Below, in pieces: positions 45,303 through 52,730 of a stretch of DNA of 64,000 nucleotides. The notes below the pieces were generated by a model. The model ran no database searches and was not told the origin of the DNA. It saw nothing but the letters and a program-made list of their open reading frames with translations. This DNA comes from Candidatus Thiodiazotropha sp. (ex Codakia rugifera) (lineage in GTDB: Bacteria; Pseudomonadota; Gammaproteobacteria; Chromatiales; Chromatiaceae). Both the position numbers and the translations under genes were made by a program. The stretch lies in NCBI GenBank assembly GCA_025656675.1, contig JAHXHN010000002.1:351302-415301 (forward strand), written 5' to 3'. Position 1 is the first letter of the stretch. Every line of letters begins with the position of its first letter.

Positions 45303-45905
45303 GTGACTGAAACCGAAGCAGAGCTACAACTCAGAGTCTGGAAAGAACTCGCGATAAGCAAGCAGATGTTAATGATGGCGGCGACTGATGCCCTGAAGCT
45401 CGACAAAGATTGCGCCCCGGAAGAGCTCAAACTCGCACTCGAAGCAACTATCAAGCACGCTACCAAAGCCGAACTCGAGGTGAGTCATGCCCAGGAACAG
45501 GCCAAGCTTGCTGTCTCTGAGGTGGAACAGCATTTGGCAGAGAGCCAAAAATCCCTGAAAGCCGTTGAAGCCGCCCTCGCTGAGGCGCAAGCGAATGTGC
45601 AGCAACTTCAGCAGCAGCTCATCACCGACCGCACCAACCATGGACAGCAGCTGAAAAAACTCAAGGAGCAACTGGCAGAGAAGGAGCGCGCAATCAAGGC
45701 CATCAGCACAACCCTGTCTGACACGCCAGAAAACGTTCTGAAGAAGCTAAAGGGACTGAAAAAACAGAAGATGGACGAGTCTGTGGCCCGCAAAAAGGCG
45801 GAAGAAACCCTTGCCGCCTTACGCAAGGAAAAGCAGAAACTTGAGCAGAGCTTGAAGGAACTGCAGGCAGCACAGGAAGAGCCTGAGGAAGAGATTGCCG
45901 CCTAG
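45303..45905 (+). CDS. Coiled-coil protein, unknown function
   Basis: 200 residues beginning with GTG 45303, preceded by AGGAGAACAT. Long heptad-rich helix (~70-195), with Lys/Glu/Gln-rich repeats and an acidic tail (EEPEEEIAA). A basic N-terminal stretch precedes it. No enzyme motif; cytoplasmic. It may be a scaffold. A strong terminator follows. Confidence 0.72.
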   Translation: MTETEAELQLRVWKELAISKQMLMMAATDALKLDKDCAPEELKLALEATIKHATKAELEVSHAQEQAKLAVSEVEQHLAESQKSLKAVEAALAEAQANVQQLQQQLITDRTNHGQQLKKLKEQLAEKERAIKAISTTLSDTPENVLKKLKGLKKQKMDESVARKKAEETLAALRKEKQKLEQSLKELQAAQEEPEEEIAA

Positions 45906-46012: not shown

Positions 46013-46032
46013 AAAGGGTACTGACTCCTTTT
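46013..46032. repeat. RAYT-linked 20-mer (one mismatch), left of the RluA gene
   Basis: AAAGGGTACTGACTCCTTTT, differing by one base from the common AAAGGGTACTGACCCCTTTT. With the inverted copy at 46990 it brackets the pseudouridine synthase gene. Confidence 0.75.
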
Positions 46033-46063
46033 CCCCTAATAGTCAAAAAATTTAGGCCTCTAA

Positions 46064-46954
46064 ATGGCAATTTCCGAGCACCCTTCAAAGCTGAGTTTAC
46101 CGCAGACTAATCCCGGCGTTGCCACAGTGCTGGAATACCTGATCATTAAATTTCCACATATTGATGCTCAGATTTGGCGGCAGCGCATCGCCGATGGCAA
46201 GGTACACTGCCACGACGGCTCACTGATAACGACACATTCGCTCTTTCAACCACAGCAACGGGTTTACTATTACAGGGAAGTCGAAAGCGAGCCCAGCATC
46301 CCCTTTAAGGAAACGATTGTATTTCAGGATCAGCATATTTTAGTGGCCTATAAACCCCCTTTTCTTGCAGTAATCCCCGGTGGAATTTTTGTGGATGAAT
46401 GCTTGCAAAATCGCTTACGACGCAGCACGGGCATTGAGGCCTTACAAGCACTACACCGCTTGGATAGAGTTACAGCAGGCTTGGTTATATTCTCGGTTAA
46501 TCCGGACACCCGTCATCAATACCATCAATTATTTAAAACACGACAAATACACAAAACATATCAGGCAATTGCCAAAATTAGTGACGGTGAGAACCTTTTA
46601 GGTCAGGAGTGGGATATTAAAAATCGTATCGTGCAATCCGAACCACGCTTTCGCATGCGTGTGACCGAGGGAGAAGCCAATAGCCACTCTGTGATTCGAT
46701 GCATACAACAATCTGCTCAGGAGGCGTTATTTGAACTAAACCCAGTTACAGGTAAAACCCATCAATTACGCGTTCACATGCAGGCACTGGGCTGGCCCAT
46801 ACTGAATGACAAATACTACCCGCATTTACAGCCGCTATCAGCGGATAACTATTCAGCACCATTGCAGTTACTGGCAAAAAGGATTCAGTTCATTGATCCA
46901 GTGACTCAGCTTCCAAGGGCCTTTAGTTATAACGGTAACTTATCACTGAAATGA
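46064..46954 (+). CDS. RluA-family pseudouridine synthase
   Basis: 296 residues. Catalytic motif LHRLDRVTAGLVIF carries the Asp; KTYQAI and GKTHQLRVHM are family signatures. It converts U to pseudouridine in rRNA or tRNA, exact site unknown. The N-terminus (IDAQIWRQRIADGKVHCHDG) looks like a weak S4-like entry. No good ribosome site before the ATG. The gene lies between two inverted copies of the RAYT-linked 20-mer, so it may have been carried in as cargo. Confidence 0.87.
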   Translation: MAISEHPSKLSLPQTNPGVATVLEYLIIKFPHIDAQIWRQRIADGKVHCHDGSLITTHSLFQPQQRVYYYREVESEPSIPFKETIVFQDQHILVAYKPPFLAVIPGGIFVDECLQNRLRRSTGIEALQALHRLDRVTAGLVIFSVNPDTRHQYHQLFKTRQIHKTYQAIAKISDGENLLGQEWDIKNRIVQSEPRFRMRVTEGEANSHSVIRCIQQSAQEALFELNPVTGKTHQLRVHMQALGWPILNDKYYPHLQPLSADNYSAPLQLLAKRIQFIDPVTQLPRAFSYNGNLSLK

Positions 46955-46989
46955 GGTGAAACAGCCAACGGCGGACAACCATTGCGGGA

Positions 46990-47789
46990 AAAAGGGGTCA
47001 GTACCCTTTTTCTCTTACTGTTTTTTCTTTCTTCCCTTTGGGCGTCCTCTTCTGGCCTGACCAACTTTACACTTCAGCTGCTTTTCAATCTGCACACAAA
47101 AGCGAGTGTTACCTAGGGGAGTACCCGTTTGAACGGTCGCTCGGATAGCGTGGACCTGATCTGCCTCTAGCACATTACGGAACAATTCACGATAGGTAAA
47201 CTGCCTGCACAGGAGATCTTGAGCTAGTTGTCGATACAAGGCATGAGGAGTAGTCAGTTTATCAGTGTATTGGGTCGCATTACCCCGATAACTGGACCAA
47301 CGATAATCAATGGGTTTTTGTACCATGCCCGCCCGAACCGGATTGAGTTCGATGTAACGCATACAAGTCAACAGATATGCATCACTATCGATCACACAGC
47401 CCTTGTGGCGTCCTTCCCACAAGGTACCGGATTTTCCGTAGGTATGATTAATATAGGGAACGTATTGACGGCCTACGAACTGTATAGTTTTGCTGATAGC
47501 CTCCGGGGATTCCGGCGTCAGAAGCAAATGGACATGGTTGGTCATTAAGCAATAGGCATGGATGGTACAACCGTGTTTGTCCGCACCCTCTTTTAACCAG
47601 GCTAAATAGGCCTGATAATCATCGGATTCAAAGAATACCGGTTGGCGGCTATTACCACGTTGGATCACATGAGCCGGAATGCCCGGCAAATAAAAACGGG
47701 GTTTTCTTGGCATTTGAACGTCCTTGTTCAGATAGCTGATGAAGTATGATTGTACTGAATAAGACGGTTAAAGGGTACTGACCCCTTTT
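46990..47789. mobile_element. REP-associated transposase element with inverted ends
   Basis: An 800-bp unit: AAAAGGGGTCAGTACCCTTT at the left end and its exact reverse complement at 47770-47789. Inside is one gene for a Y1_Tnp (RAYT) transposase. The left end starts 20-25 bases after the transposase stop, and the right end is ~57 bases upstream of its start. Confidence 0.8.
47015..47713 (-). CDS. REP-associated tyrosine transposase (RAYT/TnpREP)
   Basis: 232 residues, single-stranded DNA nuclease of the HUH/Y1 type. Starts MPRKPRFYLPGIPAHVIQRG; HUH motif in MTNHVHLLLTP; the Tyr region near QFVGRQYVPYINHTYG with GTLWEGRH and YIELNPVRAGMV, all typical of the family. A basic tail (GRPKGRKKKQ) may bind DNA. 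RAYTs process REP palindromes; here the flanking 20-mer is the likely substrate. Frame intact, so probably active. Confidence 0.9.
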   Translation of the reverse strand: MPRKPRFYLPGIPAHVIQRGNSRQPVFFESDDYQAYLAWLKEGADKHGCTIHAYCLMTNHVHLLLTPESPEAISKTIQFVGRQYVPYINHTYGKSGTLWEGRHKGCVIDSDAYLLTCMRYIELNPVRAGMVQKPIDYRWSSYRGNATQYTDKLTTPHALYRQLAQDLLCRQFTYRELFRNVLEADQVHAIRATVQTGTPLGNTRFCVQIEKQLKCKVGQARRGRPKGRKKKQ

Positions 47790-48023
47790 CTGTTGTCGCA
47801 ACAGCCCAATCTTATACAAAGGAGATTTCGCAGGAAGATTTTGAGGACACCCACCAAATGCTGCCTGATAATCACATTCAATAGGATTAGTTAATATTTG
47901 AGTGATCTATACCAACACTAAACGATGGTGTCAGCGAATAATGCCCATCCAAGCAGGTTTCCCGATAGTAAATACTATAAGTACAGACTTGACCCCCATA
48001 CCTTTGTACTGAATAAGTCGGTT

Positions 48024-48043
48024 AAAGGGTACTGACCCCTTTT
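48024..48043. repeat. RAYT-linked 20-mer with longer right-end tail
   Basis: AAAGGGTACTGACCCCTTTT, preceded by TGTACTGAATAAGTCGG (right-end type). It lies 13 bases after the PLP gene stop. The repeat extends left to ~47987 and matches 49521-49575. Confidence 0.8.
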
Positions 48044-48055
48044 CACGCAAGATTT

Positions 48056-49108
48056 TTATTTTTTAATATGTCCACTTTTAAAGCTGGGCAAACTATAGGC
48101 TTTCTCAATTACTTCTGGCGATTCATTGCAACCACTAAACTGCAAAACAACTTTTTTTCCTTTTAATTTTTCTTTTAACTTAATTGCAGCAACTATAGTT
48201 GATCCACCTGCACCCTCAACGAGATTTTGAGTGTAGTAACCAGCCATAGAAATCCCTTGATAGATTTCCTCCTCGCTAAGAAGAATAAAACCTTCCAGAT
48301 TATCCTTATAAATTTCAAATGGGGATTCATATCCAACTCCTGTCGCAAAACCTCCTGCAAATGTTGTATTTTCAGCAGATGTAATAACACCTGATTTCCA
48401 TGACAAATATGCAGCAGGAGAACTTTCAGCTTGAACAGCATAAATTTTAATATTTGGATTTATTGCTTTTAAAACAGTAACTGCTGCCGCTGCTTCACTT
48501 CCTGCTCCTATTGGTACAATTAAACTATCAATTTCTGGTAGTGATTCAATAATTTCTAGAAACTCAGTCCCAACTCCATTTATGAGATGAGGCTCATTTG
48601 CTGGATGCACATAAAAAAGGCTTTTTTCTTTGTCTATTTGTTCAACAATCTTTGAAGCTTCTTCAAAAGTTTTACCTGCTTCAATTAGTTCAGCGCCTGT
48701 ACCAAGAATTTTTCTATTTTTGGATTCATTATTATTTTCAGGAACTACTATCGTTGCATTAATCCCGAACAATGATGCGGAAGTAGCAACCGATAGACCA
48801 TGGTTACCGGTAGAAAAAGTGATGACACCTTCAGTGCCAGTACTTTTAAGGTGATGCATTAAATTAACACCCCCTCTTATTTTAAAGGTTCCGGTAGGGT
48901 TATGGTTTTCGTGCTTCACATAAATATCAGCTTCGAGCAAAGATGATAGCCCTTCATACCGTGCTAATTGTGTTGGAATTAAGTGATTGTACACTGCTTT
49001 TTTGGCTTTTATGACCTCAGCAAGACTAACTGGATATTCCTTTTTTCCTTTCATATCTTTATTTTTCTTAATAAATCTAACGCCTACATAACCGGCAAAA
49101 TGGTGCAT
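48056..49108 (-). CDS. PLP-dependent threonine/serine dehydratase-like enzyme
   Basis: 350 residues of fold-type II PLP enzyme. Lysine in TGTFKIRGGVN binds PLP; STGNHGLSVATSA and PIGAGSEAAAA are phosphate-binding loops. Most like threonine dehydratase (IlvA/TdcB catalytic domain) or serine racemase; no ACT domain. The gene is visibly A/T-rich versus its neighbours and uses Lys/Ile/Asn codons heavily, a sign of transfer. It is bracketed by inverted copies of the 20-mer (48024 and 49281). The start may be at an internal Met (residue 19). Confidence 0.87.
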   Translation of the reverse strand: MHHFAGYVGVRFIKKNKDMKGKKEYPVSLAEVIKAKKAVYNHLIPTQLARYEGLSSLLEADIYVKHENHNPTGTFKIRGGVNLMHHLKSTGTEGVITFSTGNHGLSVATSASLFGINATIVVPENNNESKNRKILGTGAELIEAGKTFEEASKIVEQIDKEKSLFYVHPANEPHLINGVGTEFLEIIESLPEIDSLIVPIGAGSEAAAAVTVLKAINPNIKIYAVQAESSPAAYLSWKSGVITSAENTTFAGGFATGVGYESPFEIYKDNLEGFILLSEEEIYQGISMAGYYTQNLVEGAGGSTIVAAIKLKEKLKGKKVVLQFSGCNESPEVIEKAYSLPSFKSGHIKK

Positions 49109-49280
49109 GGACTGATTTTTAGGCCGTGCGTCCTTTTTGTCGGGTTGATGTGATTGTTAGGGTATTTCATTTTGGTACGACCATTACCTTTACTTCTAGT
49201 TTGCCTTCTTTTCTGGATAGATCATCTTCTAGACCAGATGGATTTCTTATGTGCATTTCTGGATCATATACAAAAGAGCA

Positions 49281-49575
49281 AAAAGGGGTCAGTACCCTTT
49301 TTCTCTTACTGTTTTTTCTTTCTTCCCTTTGGGCGTCCTCTTCTGGCCTGACCGACTTTACTTTAGCTGCTTTTCAATCTGCACACAAAAGCGAGTATTA
49401 TCTAGGGGAGTACCAGTTTGAACGGTCGCACGGATAGTGTGGACCAGATCTGCCACCAGCGATATACGAGGAGCAATATGCCTCTAACTAAATAGTCCGT
49501 TTTATTGGGGGAACGTCAACCTGACCCCCATACCTTTATACTGAATAAGTCGGTTAAAGGGTACTGACCCCTTTT
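49281..49575. mobile_element. Internally deleted copy of the RAYT element
   Basis: Left end AAAAGGGGTCAGTACCCTTT (49281-49300) and right end (49556-49575) are as in the full element, but only ~170 bases of the transposase 3' part remain. The right-end 35 bases (TACTGAATAAGTCGG then the 20-mer) match 47745-47789 with one change. A non-autonomous derivative. Confidence 0.8.
49300..49454 (-). pseudogene. Truncated RAYT transposase remnant
   Basis: Matches the last ~155 bases of the transposase gene at 47015, with several substitutions and a two-base deletion near 49372 that shifts the frame. Not functional. Confidence 0.8.
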
Positions 49576-49643
49576 CTCCCTTTTCTCTTAACAGTTATAT
49601 TAACGAGAGCCCCTGTCTCGCTATACATTTTTAGGCTTGTTCA

Positions 49644-49937
49644 CTATAAGACACTGTTTAGGAAGAATTGTTCTGTTTTCACAATATGTCGGGCTGGATT
49701 TGGCTGCATTTTACGGCGTTCCTCTGACTCGTGAAACGCCGCATCTAGTTTATCCCAATTTTCTTTTCCTTCATATTTTAGTATCCAATAAAATAGATTA
49801 TTCTCTTCATTTGTCCAAGCGCCTAAGATTTCAAAACCAAGCCTTAATCTCAATGGTTTAATTTTTTCTTGCCATTCTGAAACCCAATCCTTTAAGTAAC
49901 CACGGTTGATAGTGTAAATACGCATTTGAATTGCCAT
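49644..49937 (-). CDS. NIPSNAP-family protein
   Basis: 97 residues: MRIYTINRGYLKDWVSEWQEKI and LGAWTNEENNLFYWILKYEGKENWDKLDAAF fit the NIPSNAP ferredoxin-like dimer fold seen in small bacterial proteins. No catalytic residues known. Low-GC, like the PLP gene nearby. It lies between 20-mer copies at 49556 and 50214. May act as a ligand-binding or monooxygenase-like domain. Confidence 0.82.
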   Translation of the reverse strand: MAIQMRIYTINRGYLKDWVSEWQEKIKPLRLRLGFEILGAWTNEENNLFYWILKYEGKENWDKLDAAFHESEERRKMQPNPARHIVKTEQFFLNSVL

Positions 49938-50332
49938 TACTTATCTCCTGAAAAAAGGTTAGGAAAGCAATTATGTAAGTCTAACGTCTGAATTGTGGGG
50001 CCGAGCAGAAGCAGAGGTACCACACAAATGACTGGTTATGTTTCATAGCAAAAAGGCCGCAAAATACATCAAGCGACAGCCTTGAATTCTCATTTAAATC
50101 CAAGACAAACTCTGATCAATAACCTTTCTCAACTCTTCGCGATGAGTAGAAAACTGCCATACGTTGGATGGCTAATGATACCGTTTTTAAATCGGCATAA
50201 AAAATTACCGGTTAAAGGGTACTGACCCCTTTTCTCCTGACCCCTTTTCTCTAAAGGGTACTGACCCCTTTTCTCTCTTATGACTTGTTAGAACTTAATA
50301 CCACCTAAATAGCAAGCCAGTTGACCACATAT
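49938..50332. other. Repeat-rich spacer
   Basis: Contains two full 20-mers (50214-50233 and 50253-50272) and a partial unit between. No gene. Confidence 0.6.
50214..50272. repeat. Two copies of the RAYT-linked 20-mer and a partial one
   Basis: AAAGGGTACTGACCCCTTTT at 50214-50233 and 50253-50272; between them CTGACCCCTTTTCTC. All in the same direction. Confidence 0.8.
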
Positions 50333-51019
50333 TTAGATGGCGACCAGCTCGGCGACTTTTTCAGCGACAATACTCATTGAGTCTTCTTCAGTGTCTAGGC
50401 CGCTTCGGGAAGCGAGCAATGGGCTGACATTACGAAGAGCTTCGTACGTAGTGTTATGAACGATGGGAACGAGCTTATTACCTGCCAGAAGTGTCGAAAG
50501 CTCTTTGTCGGCGACGCCCTCTTTTGGAAGGCGAGTCAATAGCGCAGGGGTTACCAGTACAAGTCCGATTCGAGAATTCGCTAAGCCCTTATCGATGGCG
50601 CGCATCATAGGTACGCCGAGGCCAAGATCCTTTTCGCTGAACCAAACTTTAACACCGGCAGTCTCGAGTAAATCGTGTAGCTCTTTGGCAGGCCCTTGCC
50701 TGTCGTCCCAAGCGTGGCAGAGGAAAACGTCGCGAAGGTTAGGTTGCTCTGCTGCTCGTGTCTCAACGGTTTCCCGGATTGGCGTGAGTGACTGTACTTG
50801 AGTAGGCGTGTACGATACAGACGAACCCGCTTTCGACCAGCGTGGCTTTGCACTGCGGCTGGACCCACCGGCACTGCTCCAAGACGGGGAGTAAGACGAA
50901 GGCGAGTATGAGCTATAGCCGCCACCCCCATAACGACCATAGCGCCCGCCACATGCAGGGCAATTTGCTCTGCCGCTTGCTGTGCGGTGTCCCCTTGATG
51001 GTGCTGTGCATCTAGCCAT
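50333..51019 (-). CDS. TIR-domain protein with Cys and Gly/Ser-rich N-terminus
   Basis: 228 residues. N-terminus MARCTAPSRGHRTASGRANCPACGGRYG has CPAC, a possible part of a small zinc ribbon, then a Gly/Tyr/Ser-rich linker and a TIR domain (~95-228): RDVFLCHAWDDRQGPAKELH, acidic loop VWFSEKDLGLG with candidate Glu, and VLVTPALL. It resembles defence or effector TIRs with a short sensor. The next gene on this strand, AlbA_2, starts upstream with ~100 bases between. Third TIR in the window. Confidence 0.83.
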   Translation of the reverse strand: MARCTAPSRGHRTASGRANCPACGGRYGRYGGGGYSSYSPSSYSPSWSSAGGSSRSAKPRWSKAGSSVSYTPTQVQSLTPIRETVETRAAEQPNLRDVFLCHAWDDRQGPAKELHDLLETAGVKVWFSEKDLGLGVPMMRAIDKGLANSRIGLVLVTPALLTRLPKEGVADKELSTLLAGNKLVPIVHNTTYEALRNVSPLLASRSGLDTEEDSMSIVAEKVAELVAI

Positions 51020-51118
51020 GTACCTTACCTCTCTATTTGAATGAGTAGTTCTAACGCCTGTATTCAGGGGCCGAGGCGAAGCCGAGGTCCCAGCCCGAAA
51101 GGCGACTGGAATTTTTTG

Positions 51119-52507
51119 TTAGCCTTGAGTTGGTTTTCGCCATGCTGATGCGCTCCCCTTTTTGCCGGGTACTTGTTCTAGCAGACCACGATCACGCAAT
51201 CGGTAGAACACCTCCTTCATAGTGTTTTCCGACTTGATTGCTGTCAGTTCACGGGCAGTTGAATTGGTGATTTGCTCGTGTGAGCCTAGGTACTCCATAA
51301 CCAACTGCTCAGGGGAACCTAAGCTTTCGTGTCGAAGAACAACAAGTACAGAGTTCTCACCTTCTTGAATTACAGGCTCTTTCAAGCGCAATTTTTCCAT
51401 CGACTCGAAAGCTGTATTGAGGCCTTCTCCTACATCCTTATTCGGTGCGTTAGGAAACTTATTTGCGATCCTTACCAATGCGGGGTTGCGTGCAAACTGT
51501 TCAGTGAGAATGTTCCCATGGGTTATGTGGCCAGCTAGCTTTCCGGGACTTTGAATCTCCAGTCGGTTGTCGTAGATTCTAATCTGGCAATCAGCCGCAA
51601 TGCTGTAATCTCTATGGAGAACGGCATTTGTAATAATTTCGTGCAAGGCCTCTTCCGGGTATATGACTTTCTCAAGCCCATGTGGCCCAAGCTTTTCAAT
51701 TTCTTCGATAATCTCTTTAACTTTATCTACTGCGGCGTAGATCAGTTCGACAACCGGTCCCTCAATTGTCAATGGATCAAAGACGAGTGCATCCCTTTCT
51801 CCTTCTTCTTTCGTTTTATATCGAAAGATCTTAATCGCAGACCGCTTGGGCAATATCGCCTGAGGCTCATCAGCTAGTAACATTATTCCCGCTACTGTTG
51901 GGCGGTTTTCTCGTAATAGGCGTTGCTTTCTAACCCATGCTTCTGGTTCTGCTGTTGGAACAACATGAATAAGAAAATCGATCACCGTTTCTGAGTTGGT
52001 TATGAAATCCTCTTCGGCATCGGTGAGCTCATTTTCAAAGGAGACTATACCTTTGTTGTACTTCAAGGCTTGAATCGCATCATCGTCTTTGACCGGAAGC
52101 TTCTGAGCACCCTTTCTAAGGTATGCCGTTCCGTTGGAGGAGGTAATGATTTCACGGGTTTTGAAGACTGTTACCGCCAACACTAAACCAATATTGTCTA
52201 AGCTTGATAAAAAAGTGGCCTCGTAGTGGTTACCAAGAGGTGATAGTTCATGGATGGTTTGAATTAAGGCATTGGCCGCTTCTTGGTTTTGAAAACCCCT
52301 CCATTCCCTTTCTTCGCCATTTGGCCCCATCTTGTCATCTATGCCGATAAATATCTCTCCACCACTAGCGTTGGCGAAGGCGGATACTGTTTTCGAAGCA
52401 GACTGAGGTGATACTTCAATTGCTTTGAAGTCAAGGAAGTGGCTTTCATCGGTACCTAATAGTCGGACCACTTCATCCTGAGACTGTTCTTTTACTGTGA
52501 TATCCAC
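51119..52507 (-). CDS. AlbA_2/HATPase regulator (RecG-like, Schlafen-type)
   Basis: 462 residues. The AlbA_2 domain at the N-terminus (ESHFLDFKAIEVSPQSASKTVSAFANASGGEIFIGIDD) is related to Schlafen nucleic-acid domains. A HATPase_c_4-type segment (ALHEIITNAVLHRDYS, IQSPGKL) follows, with a winged-helix C-terminus (STARELTAIKSENTMKEVFYRLRDRGLL). Such proteins are annotated as ATP-binding transcriptional regulators and are frequent in defence islands. Here it precedes the TIR gene in transcription order, so the pair may form a defence unit. Confidence 0.87.
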   Translation of the reverse strand: MDITVKEQSQDEVVRLLGTDESHFLDFKAIEVSPQSASKTVSAFANASGGEIFIGIDDKMGPNGEEREWRGFQNQEAANALIQTIHELSPLGNHYEATFLSSLDNIGLVLAVTVFKTREIITSSNGTAYLRKGAQKLPVKDDDAIQALKYNKGIVSFENELTDAEEDFITNSETVIDFLIHVVPTAEPEAWVRKQRLLRENRPTVAGIMLLADEPQAILPKRSAIKIFRYKTKEEGERDALVFDPLTIEGPVVELIYAAVDKVKEIIEEIEKLGPHGLEKVIYPEEALHEIITNAVLHRDYSIAADCQIRIYDNRLEIQSPGKLAGHITHGNILTEQFARNPALVRIANKFPNAPNKDVGEGLNTAFESMEKLRLKEPVIQEGENSVLVVLRHESLGSPEQLVMEYLGSHEQITNSTARELTAIKSENTMKEVFYRLRDRGLLEQVPGKKGSASAWRKPTQG

Positions 52508-52730
52508 GGGTTCTCCATTTTGTAGACTAACTACAATTCCACCCCAAAACAGTCCTGTTGTAACAGGTCAATCCTGTACAGTAAAATTCCAATCAAAACG
52601 TAACTAATAGATAAACCAGTCAATACAAGGTAAATAGGGTTAATTAACAAAAAAGAAAAACCAGGCAATGGCGCAAAGCGCCAAAGCCCACCCGCAACAG
52701 CAGGTTCAGAGGAGAGGAGGTAAAACCCTT

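What the first reader, a model, noticed from the sequence alone, without database searches (positions are those of the whole stretch)
46013..50272. Cargo genes each bracketed by copies of a RAYT-linked 20-mer
The perfect 20-mer AAAGGGTACTGACCCCTTTT (or its reverse complement) occurs at 46990, 47770, 48024, 49281, 49556, 50214 and 50253, and with one mismatch at 46013. Inverted copies bracket the transposase and, separately, the RluA gene and the A/T-rich PLP gene; same-direction copies bracket the NIPSNAP gene. RAYTs normally move short REP palindromes, not genes. This layout suggests that the element can pick up or help assemble cassettes.
Basis: partly seen in the sequence, partly recalled or inferred. 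Interest (0 to 1): 0.78.

Follow-up and report, generated by a model that had tools for sequence, protein, structure and literature searches.

The report
Transposon ends scattered among integron cassettes
The repeated 20-letter sequence is the end of a small jumping gene that has landed several times in a patch of genes, several of which look like integron cassettes, so the repeats seem to bracket genes without having collected them; this is largely ordinary, though the repeats often sit where gene order has been reshuffled.

Summary
In detail: seven perfect copies and one single-mismatch copy at the stated places, none expected by chance. The 20-mer is the terminal inverted repeat of an 800-bp element (46990-47789) coding a Y1/HUH transposase. 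It carries GGGGTCAG, fitting the published GGGGWSAS motif of TIRYTs, RAYT relatives with terminal repeats. 49281-49575 is an internally deleted copy; 46013, 48024, 50214 and 50253 are lone ends. Only the transposase lies between a matched pair of ends; rluA and PLP lie between outward-facing ends of neighbours. PLP, NIPSNAP, TIR-domain and AlbA genes form a row with three predicted attC sites, two strong and one weak, in a genome of the genus Ca. Thiodiazotropha that codes an integron integrase elsewhere. Integron recombination therefore explains the cassettes better than capture by the transposase. The place beside nrdB varies across the genus. Repeats lie within 15 nt of 10 of 102 synteny breakpoints there, against 1.4 expected, so they may serve as recombination joints. 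A class-wide link to integrons was not shown (2 of 69 homologue loci; control). New member of known kinds; modest interest.

The parts
46990..47789 (-). Complete 800-bp TIRYT-type element: perfect 20-bp inverted ends and one transposase gene
   Evidence: same anatomy with identical 20-mers in G300, another family of the class
47015..47713 (-). Y1/HUH transposase (HVH at residues 60-62; Y120 in RYIELNPVRAGMV; the role of these residues is recalled)
   Evidence: Pfam Y1_Tnp 1.9e-12; NCBIfam REP_Tyr_transpos 66.3 bits, E 2.7e-18, below the cut-off of 80; conserved residues
46990..47009 (-). Terminal repeat, 3'-of-transposase end
47770..47789 (+). Terminal repeat, 5'-of-transposase end
46013..46032 (+). 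Lone 5'-type end, one mismatch; hybrid junction with left flank as in G004 and right flank as in G001
46064..46954 (+). RluA-family pseudouridine synthase gene; only G001 of 21 other genus genomes has a close copy (95%)
47987..48044 (+). Lone 5'-type end (20-mer at 48024-48043) sharing 58 nt (97%) with the end of the deleted copy at 49519-49576
48056..49054 (-). PLP-dependent enzyme gene (threonine/serine-dehydratase-like, below every NCBIfam cut-off shown), probably an integron cassette; its own downstream attC not found; a 20-mer lies 12 nt past the stop codon
   Evidence: start moved from 49108 because the predicted attC ends at 49075
49075..49162 (-). Predicted attC site before PLP (weakest of the three; not a model seed)
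   Evidence: R1 19.9 bits, E 0.087 in 133 kb and 0.21 in 326 kb; one-base bulge in the inner stem seen by eye
49281..49575 (-). Internally deleted element (295 bp)
49644..49937 (-). NIPSNAP-family gene, probable cassette
   Evidence: Pfam 1.2e-7; follows the attC at 49979-50041
49979..50041 (-). Predicted attC site
   Evidence: 52.5 bits, E 5.9e-9; a seed of the model
50214..50233 (+). Lone 5'-type end
50253..50272 (+). Second lone copy, in tandem
50333..51019 (-). TIR-domain gene (Toll/interleukin receptor domain), probable cassette
   Evidence: Pfam TIR_2 3.4e-14
51049..51124 (-). Predicted attC site
   Evidence: 59.1 bits, E 1.7e-10; a seed of the model
51119..52507 (-). AlbA_2/HATPase_c_4 gene, first probable cassette of the row
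52525..52531 (-). GTTAGTC where synteny with G001 stops (break inside GTTA); possible cassette entry point

Best explanation
The region between nrdB and the coiled-coil gene at 45303 is a variable site. Integron gene cassettes (AlbA, TIR-domain, NIPSNAP, PLP) entered it as a cluster of attC sites without its own integrase; this entry is inferred, perhaps by the integrase coded elsewhere in the genome. A small TIRYT-type element, a RAYT relative that here behaves as a low-copy insertion sequence, landed there several times. It left one complete copy, one deleted copy and several lone ends. The bracketing of genes by 20-mers follows from several insertions in a small space. Recombination or slippage between repeat copies then probably deleted or rearranged neighbouring DNA; the junction at 46013 is the clearest case (inferred).
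For: Element: inverted 20-mers round the transposase here, in G001 and in distant G300. Of 66 class-level homologue loci examined, 48 have inverted ends, 41 of them with GGGTC; 0 with shuffled flanks. Copies lie at unrelated flanks in one genome. Polarity puts rluA and PLP outside the ends. Cassettes: three predicted attC in the window, five unseeded attC hits (E 0.0003-0.29) beside the intact integrase on C15, paired-column support. Nearness: with the 33 attC hits, 3 of 7 20-mer contigs of this genome have one within 1 kb, 1.1% of the genome being that close (P 4e-5); 4 of 7 with three more sites found only in fetched loci. Joints: 46013 joins a G004-like left flank to a G001-like right flank; 10 of 102 breakpoints within 15 nt of a repeat, null mean 1.4, maximum 9 in 5000 shifts.
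Against: The PLP cassette lacks its own attC, and the third attC is weak on the model that was not trained on it. No exact empty site without the element was found. No attI was sought, and no integrase lies in the window. In seven relatives only 1 of 15 20-mer clusters is within 1 kb of an attC hit (the scans scored only 150 candidates per genome). Breakpoints are not independent, the test was devised after seeing cases, and some may only mark insertions. The 20-mer's hairpin is not clearly better than shuffles (z -0.8 to -1.6).
Confidence: 0.83

Rival explanations
1. The element captures genes: two copies act together as a composite unit and carry the gene between them.
For: Genes are bracketed. 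In G002 and G007 a gene block (reductase-like by eye) with repeats at its edges has swapped order with its neighbour block. Repeats are enriched at breakpoints.
Against: The ends round rluA and PLP face away from the gene. In the loci fetched I saw no second site with the same gene and two ends. G001 has rluA with an element on one side only. G010 and G016 have the same gene block with no repeat copy found in those loci.
Confidence: 0.07
2. Pure insertion: the repeats are passive marks of transposition into a tolerant region and have no part in rearrangement.
For: The site differs in content also at loci with no 20-mer, such as L067 and L073. Only 7 of 21 other genus genomes hold copies with at most 1 mismatch.
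Against: 46013 joins flanks that in two relatives belong to different copies; breakpoint enrichment.
Confidence: 0.35
3. The element targets attC sites, like the IS1111-attC group (that group is recalled).
For: 3 or 4 of 7 20-mer contigs in this genome have a copy close to attC; two homologues in other genera sit among attC sites.
Against: No 20-mer of this genome lies inside a predicted attC; the nearest gap, on C19, is 84 nt, and 119 nt in the window. Only 1 of 15 clusters in relatives and 2 of 69 homologue loci are near one.
Confidence: 0.05

Closest known systems
TIRtron/TIRYT (Di Nocera et al. 2013, PMC3733652, passages; probably TnpAREP subclass 2.1 in PMC6006769, section 20)
   Same: Y1/HUH transposase flanked by terminal inverted repeats with GGGGWSAS (GGGGTCAG here); repeat copies also single, paired or clustered in the genome
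   Different: Here several copies or fragments of the transposase element lie in one genome, partly among integron cassettes; no C-terminal HTH domain detected by Pfam
RAYT/REPtron with REPINs
   Same: Related transposase (NF047646, below cut-off); short inverted repeat pairs of 57-72 bp in G013 and G048
   Different: No GTAG/GTGG foot seen in the 20-mer or its flanks; 16 copies, not hundreds; element multi-copy, while REPtrons are said not to move as a unit (PMC6006769, passages)
CALIN (cluster of attC sites lacking an integrase)
   Same: Row of genes with attC sites between them, integrase elsewhere in the genome
   Different: Only three predicted attC sites, interrupted by transposable elements
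ISHahl1 (IS200/IS605) beside a CALIN in Halorhodospira halochloris (PMC7923331, passages read)
   Same: HUH transposon next to an attC cluster in a gammaproteobacterium; the authors discuss whether it could mobilise it
   Different: IS605-group element with tnpB and hairpin ends, lying directly downstream of the CALIN

Membership tests
TIRYT/TIRtron | Y1 transposase with HUH and catalytic tyrosine | tested here: met
TIRYT/TIRtron | Flanking terminal inverted repeats instead of GTAG REPs | tested here: met
   48 of 66 homologue loci
TIRYT/TIRtron | GGGGWSAS motif in the repeat | tested here: met
   motif; the 7 perfect 20-mers carry GGGGTCAG, the 46013 copy does not; the motif alone is common (21 in the window, 12.35 expected); 29 of 66 homologue loci
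TnpAREP subclass 2.1 | C-terminal HTH-like domain | tested here: inconclusive
Canonical RAYT (NF047646) | Curated model cut-off of 80 bits | tested here: not met
   66.3 bits
Canonical RAYT/REP | GT[AG]G tetranucleotide at the foot of the hairpin | tested here: not met
   repeat and both flanks read by eye
Canonical RAYT/REP | Palindrome that folds as single strand | tested here: inconclusive
   6-bp stem, -3.5 to -4.3 kcal/mol, z -0.8 to -1.6 against shuffles
Integron cassette cluster (CALIN) | attC sites with R''/R' boxes and paired inner boxes | tested here: met
   two strong sites (both model seeds), one weak unseeded site
Integron cassette cluster (CALIN) | No integrase next to the sites | tested here: met
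   no hit within the window; one hit over the cut-off, on C15
Integron cassette cluster (CALIN) | attC recombined by the integrase | not testable with these tools
   needs an assay

The most novel reading that the evidence does not exclude
TIRYT elements remodel arrays of modular genes: their end repeats seed recombination joints that delete, fuse and reorder integron cassettes and other small modules, adding an integrase-independent way to shuffle cassettes.
Probability: 0.18. Interest if true: 0.6.

Novelty: new member of a known kind. Interest (0 to 1): 0.34.

Why it matters
It shows how a layout that looks like gene capture can arise from two independent systems meeting in one spot. If the joint role holds, it would give little-studied TIRYTs a measurable effect on genome order, and could explain lost attC sites inside cassette clusters. 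The host belongs to a group of clam symbionts (inferred from the named record behind its genus mate G001), in which gene content next to nrdB varies from species to species.

Tried and rejected
Rejected: capture by composite ends (ends round rluA and PLP face the wrong way). attC targeting (no 20-mer inside a predicted attC). A fixed orientation of element to cassettes: same strand in the window, C7, C19, G001 and L132, opposite in L128. Class-wide enrichment near integrons: the 69 best-scoring of 118 homologue places outside this genome were examined; 2 have attC hits at E below 0.01 (L128, L132; 29 loci, where L118, L112 and L117 have weak hits at E 0.13-0.59; 40 loci, none up to E 2). In 20 control stretches, 388 kb, there is one hit, at E 2. 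I claim no difference; the attC model was trained on this genome and may miss others.

Led nowhere: first hand-made attC scanners found few sites or nearly as many in random sequence. Search for an intact copy of the interrupted small gene between NIPSNAP and the third attC: a 37-residue piece resembles the ends of longer plasmid proteins; the other side turned out to hold a small repeat, so no empty site could be shown. PLP: 0 of 368 other class genomes at E 1e-70, only one of them (G009) from the genus, and no hit in the fetched loci. NIPSNAP in viral contigs: none. Transposase in PDB and PHROGs: none.

Dropped before counting: matches under 150 bp or 78% identity, loci without any repeat copy (9 of 16), and 4 element-to-element matches; before that last drop the count was 14 of 108 against 1.5. 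L074, L076 and the genus genomes with no or short nrdB contigs were not used there. In one search, 3 of 69 loci too near a contig end. In one search, three attC sites (C7 2025, C19 5284 and 6151) were added, which searched only fetched loci; one search repeats the count without them (3 of 7 contigs within 1 kb, 4 of 7 within 2 kb).

Full report
What is there. Sixteen copies with up to two mismatches lie in the genome, on seven contigs. Exact copies occur in 9 of 369 class genomes, this one included, and copies with up to one mismatch in 7 of 21 other genus genomes. The closest named relatives of the transposase are in Candidatus Thiodiazotropha and a symbiont of the clam Ctena, with a more distant one in Ca. 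Tenderia.

The element. Inverted 20-mers enclose a Y1/HUH transposase in an 800-bp unit (46990-47789). The transposase matches Pfam Y1_Tnp and NCBI's REP-associated tyrosine transposase model at 66.3 bits, below its cut-off of 80. Relatives at E up to 1e-60 are in 90 of 369 class genomes, this one included. The same unit with identical 20-mers is in G300, another family of the class. Of 66 homologue loci examined, 48 carry inverted ends, 41 of these with GGGTC and 29 with the published GGGGWSAS motif of TIRYTs; shuffled flanks gave 0. Passages of PMC3733652 and section 20 of PMC6006769 describe this kind. So the element is best called a TIRYT-type element.

Copies and polarity. 49281-49575 keeps both ends and about 180 bp of the 3' side, repeat included. 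46013, 48024 and 50214 are lone 5'-type ends, and 50253 is a further lone copy in tandem. Because ends have polarity, rluA and PLP lie outside elements, between outward-facing ends; NIPSNAP lies between the outer side of 49556 and the inner side of the lone end 50214. The bracketing therefore needs no capture.

The cargo. Reading the minus strand, AlbA_2, attC, TIR-domain gene, attC, NIPSNAP, attC, PLP follow one another. Two attC sites were among ten hand-picked seeds; the third, 49075-49162, was found by the model at 19.9 bits (E 0.087 in 133 kb; 0.21 in 326 kb). The same model found five unseeded sites (E 0.0003 to 0.29) beside the intact integrase on contig C15. Shuffling the 3' letters of paired columns reached the observed covariation in 1 of 500 trials, on an alignment fitted to that structure. 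GC of the genes differs widely. Synteny with G001 stops within GTTA at 52525-52531, the kind of point where integrases join cassettes (recalled). RluA has no attC hit beside it; G001 alone of 21 other genus genomes has a close copy.

Comparison with relatives. The interval next to nrdB differs in content between species. G001 has rluA with a complete element 5' of it; here rluA has a lone end 5' and the complete element 3'. The left flank of the 46013 copy matches G004 and its right flank matches G001, as expected if two direct repeats recombined and lost what lay between. In G002 and G007, blocks with repeats at their edges stand in opposite orders. Across the site, 10 of 102 breakpoints lie within 15 nt of a repeat against 1.4 expected. 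The breakpoints are not independent, repeat copies were allowed up to three mismatches to two variants, and the test was devised after seeing cases.

Link to integrons. With the 33 attC hits of the genome scan, 3 of 7 20-mer contigs have one within 1 kb, which covers 1.1% of the genome, and 4 of 7 within 2 kb; with three more sites found in fetched loci it is 4 of 7 within 1 kb. In seven relatives it is 1 of 15 clusters. Among homologues in the class it is 2 of 69 loci, L128 and L132, against one weak hit (E 2) in 388 kb of control DNA. The link is strong in this genome and unproven in general.

Literature. I saw listings only for these searches: RAYT or REP with integron or attC (20 of 48, 12 of 17 and 9 of 9 papers listed), TIRYT (2 of 2) and tyrosine transposases with integron cassette arrays (10 of 19). 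By title and abstract start none of those listed describes TIRYTs inside cassette arrays; the library holds open-licence papers only. An IS200/IS605 element next to a CALIN is published (PMC7923331, passages). PMC8266576 compares REP recognition with attC recognition but reports no such element in the passages seen. IS1111 elements that insert in attC are recalled.

Verdict. Two known kinds of mobile DNA overlap. A role of the repeats as joints is possible and testable.

Noticed in passing
G000 contig C15:4701-5639; C9, C6:176299-177203, C2:626245-626891, C5:31745-32016: One integron integrase over the cut-off with predicted attC sites to its left, and several weaker or interrupted integrase-like pieces, some near attC hits.
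   Followed up: partly
L063 and L069 (G002, G007), beside nrdB: A variant repeat (TAAAGGGGTCAGAGCCCTTT), a diverged transposase in L063, and a gene block, reductase-like by eye, that changed order between species.
   Followed up: partly
L100-L102: Viral contigs from metagenomes carry the 20-mer; L100 shows phage structural genes by eye.
   Followed up: no
L136 (P. aeruginosa NZ_CP116719.1): Three places related to the transposase (best 44% identity) lie among small genes, several annotated as toxin or nuclease domains; no attC hit there.
   Followed up: no
L012 1801-2371 (G000 C19): Two 3'-type ends in a row, one apparently inside another copy's transposase gene.
   Followed up: no
window 49589-49634; L088 2623-2668; L093 12944-12989; L089 2510-2553: Another short dispersed repeat of about 46 nt, 87-93% identical.
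   Followed up: no
G358:C1:48569-90560: Five transposase homologues with the same score and E-value within 42 kb of a 1.5-Mb genome.
   Followed up: no
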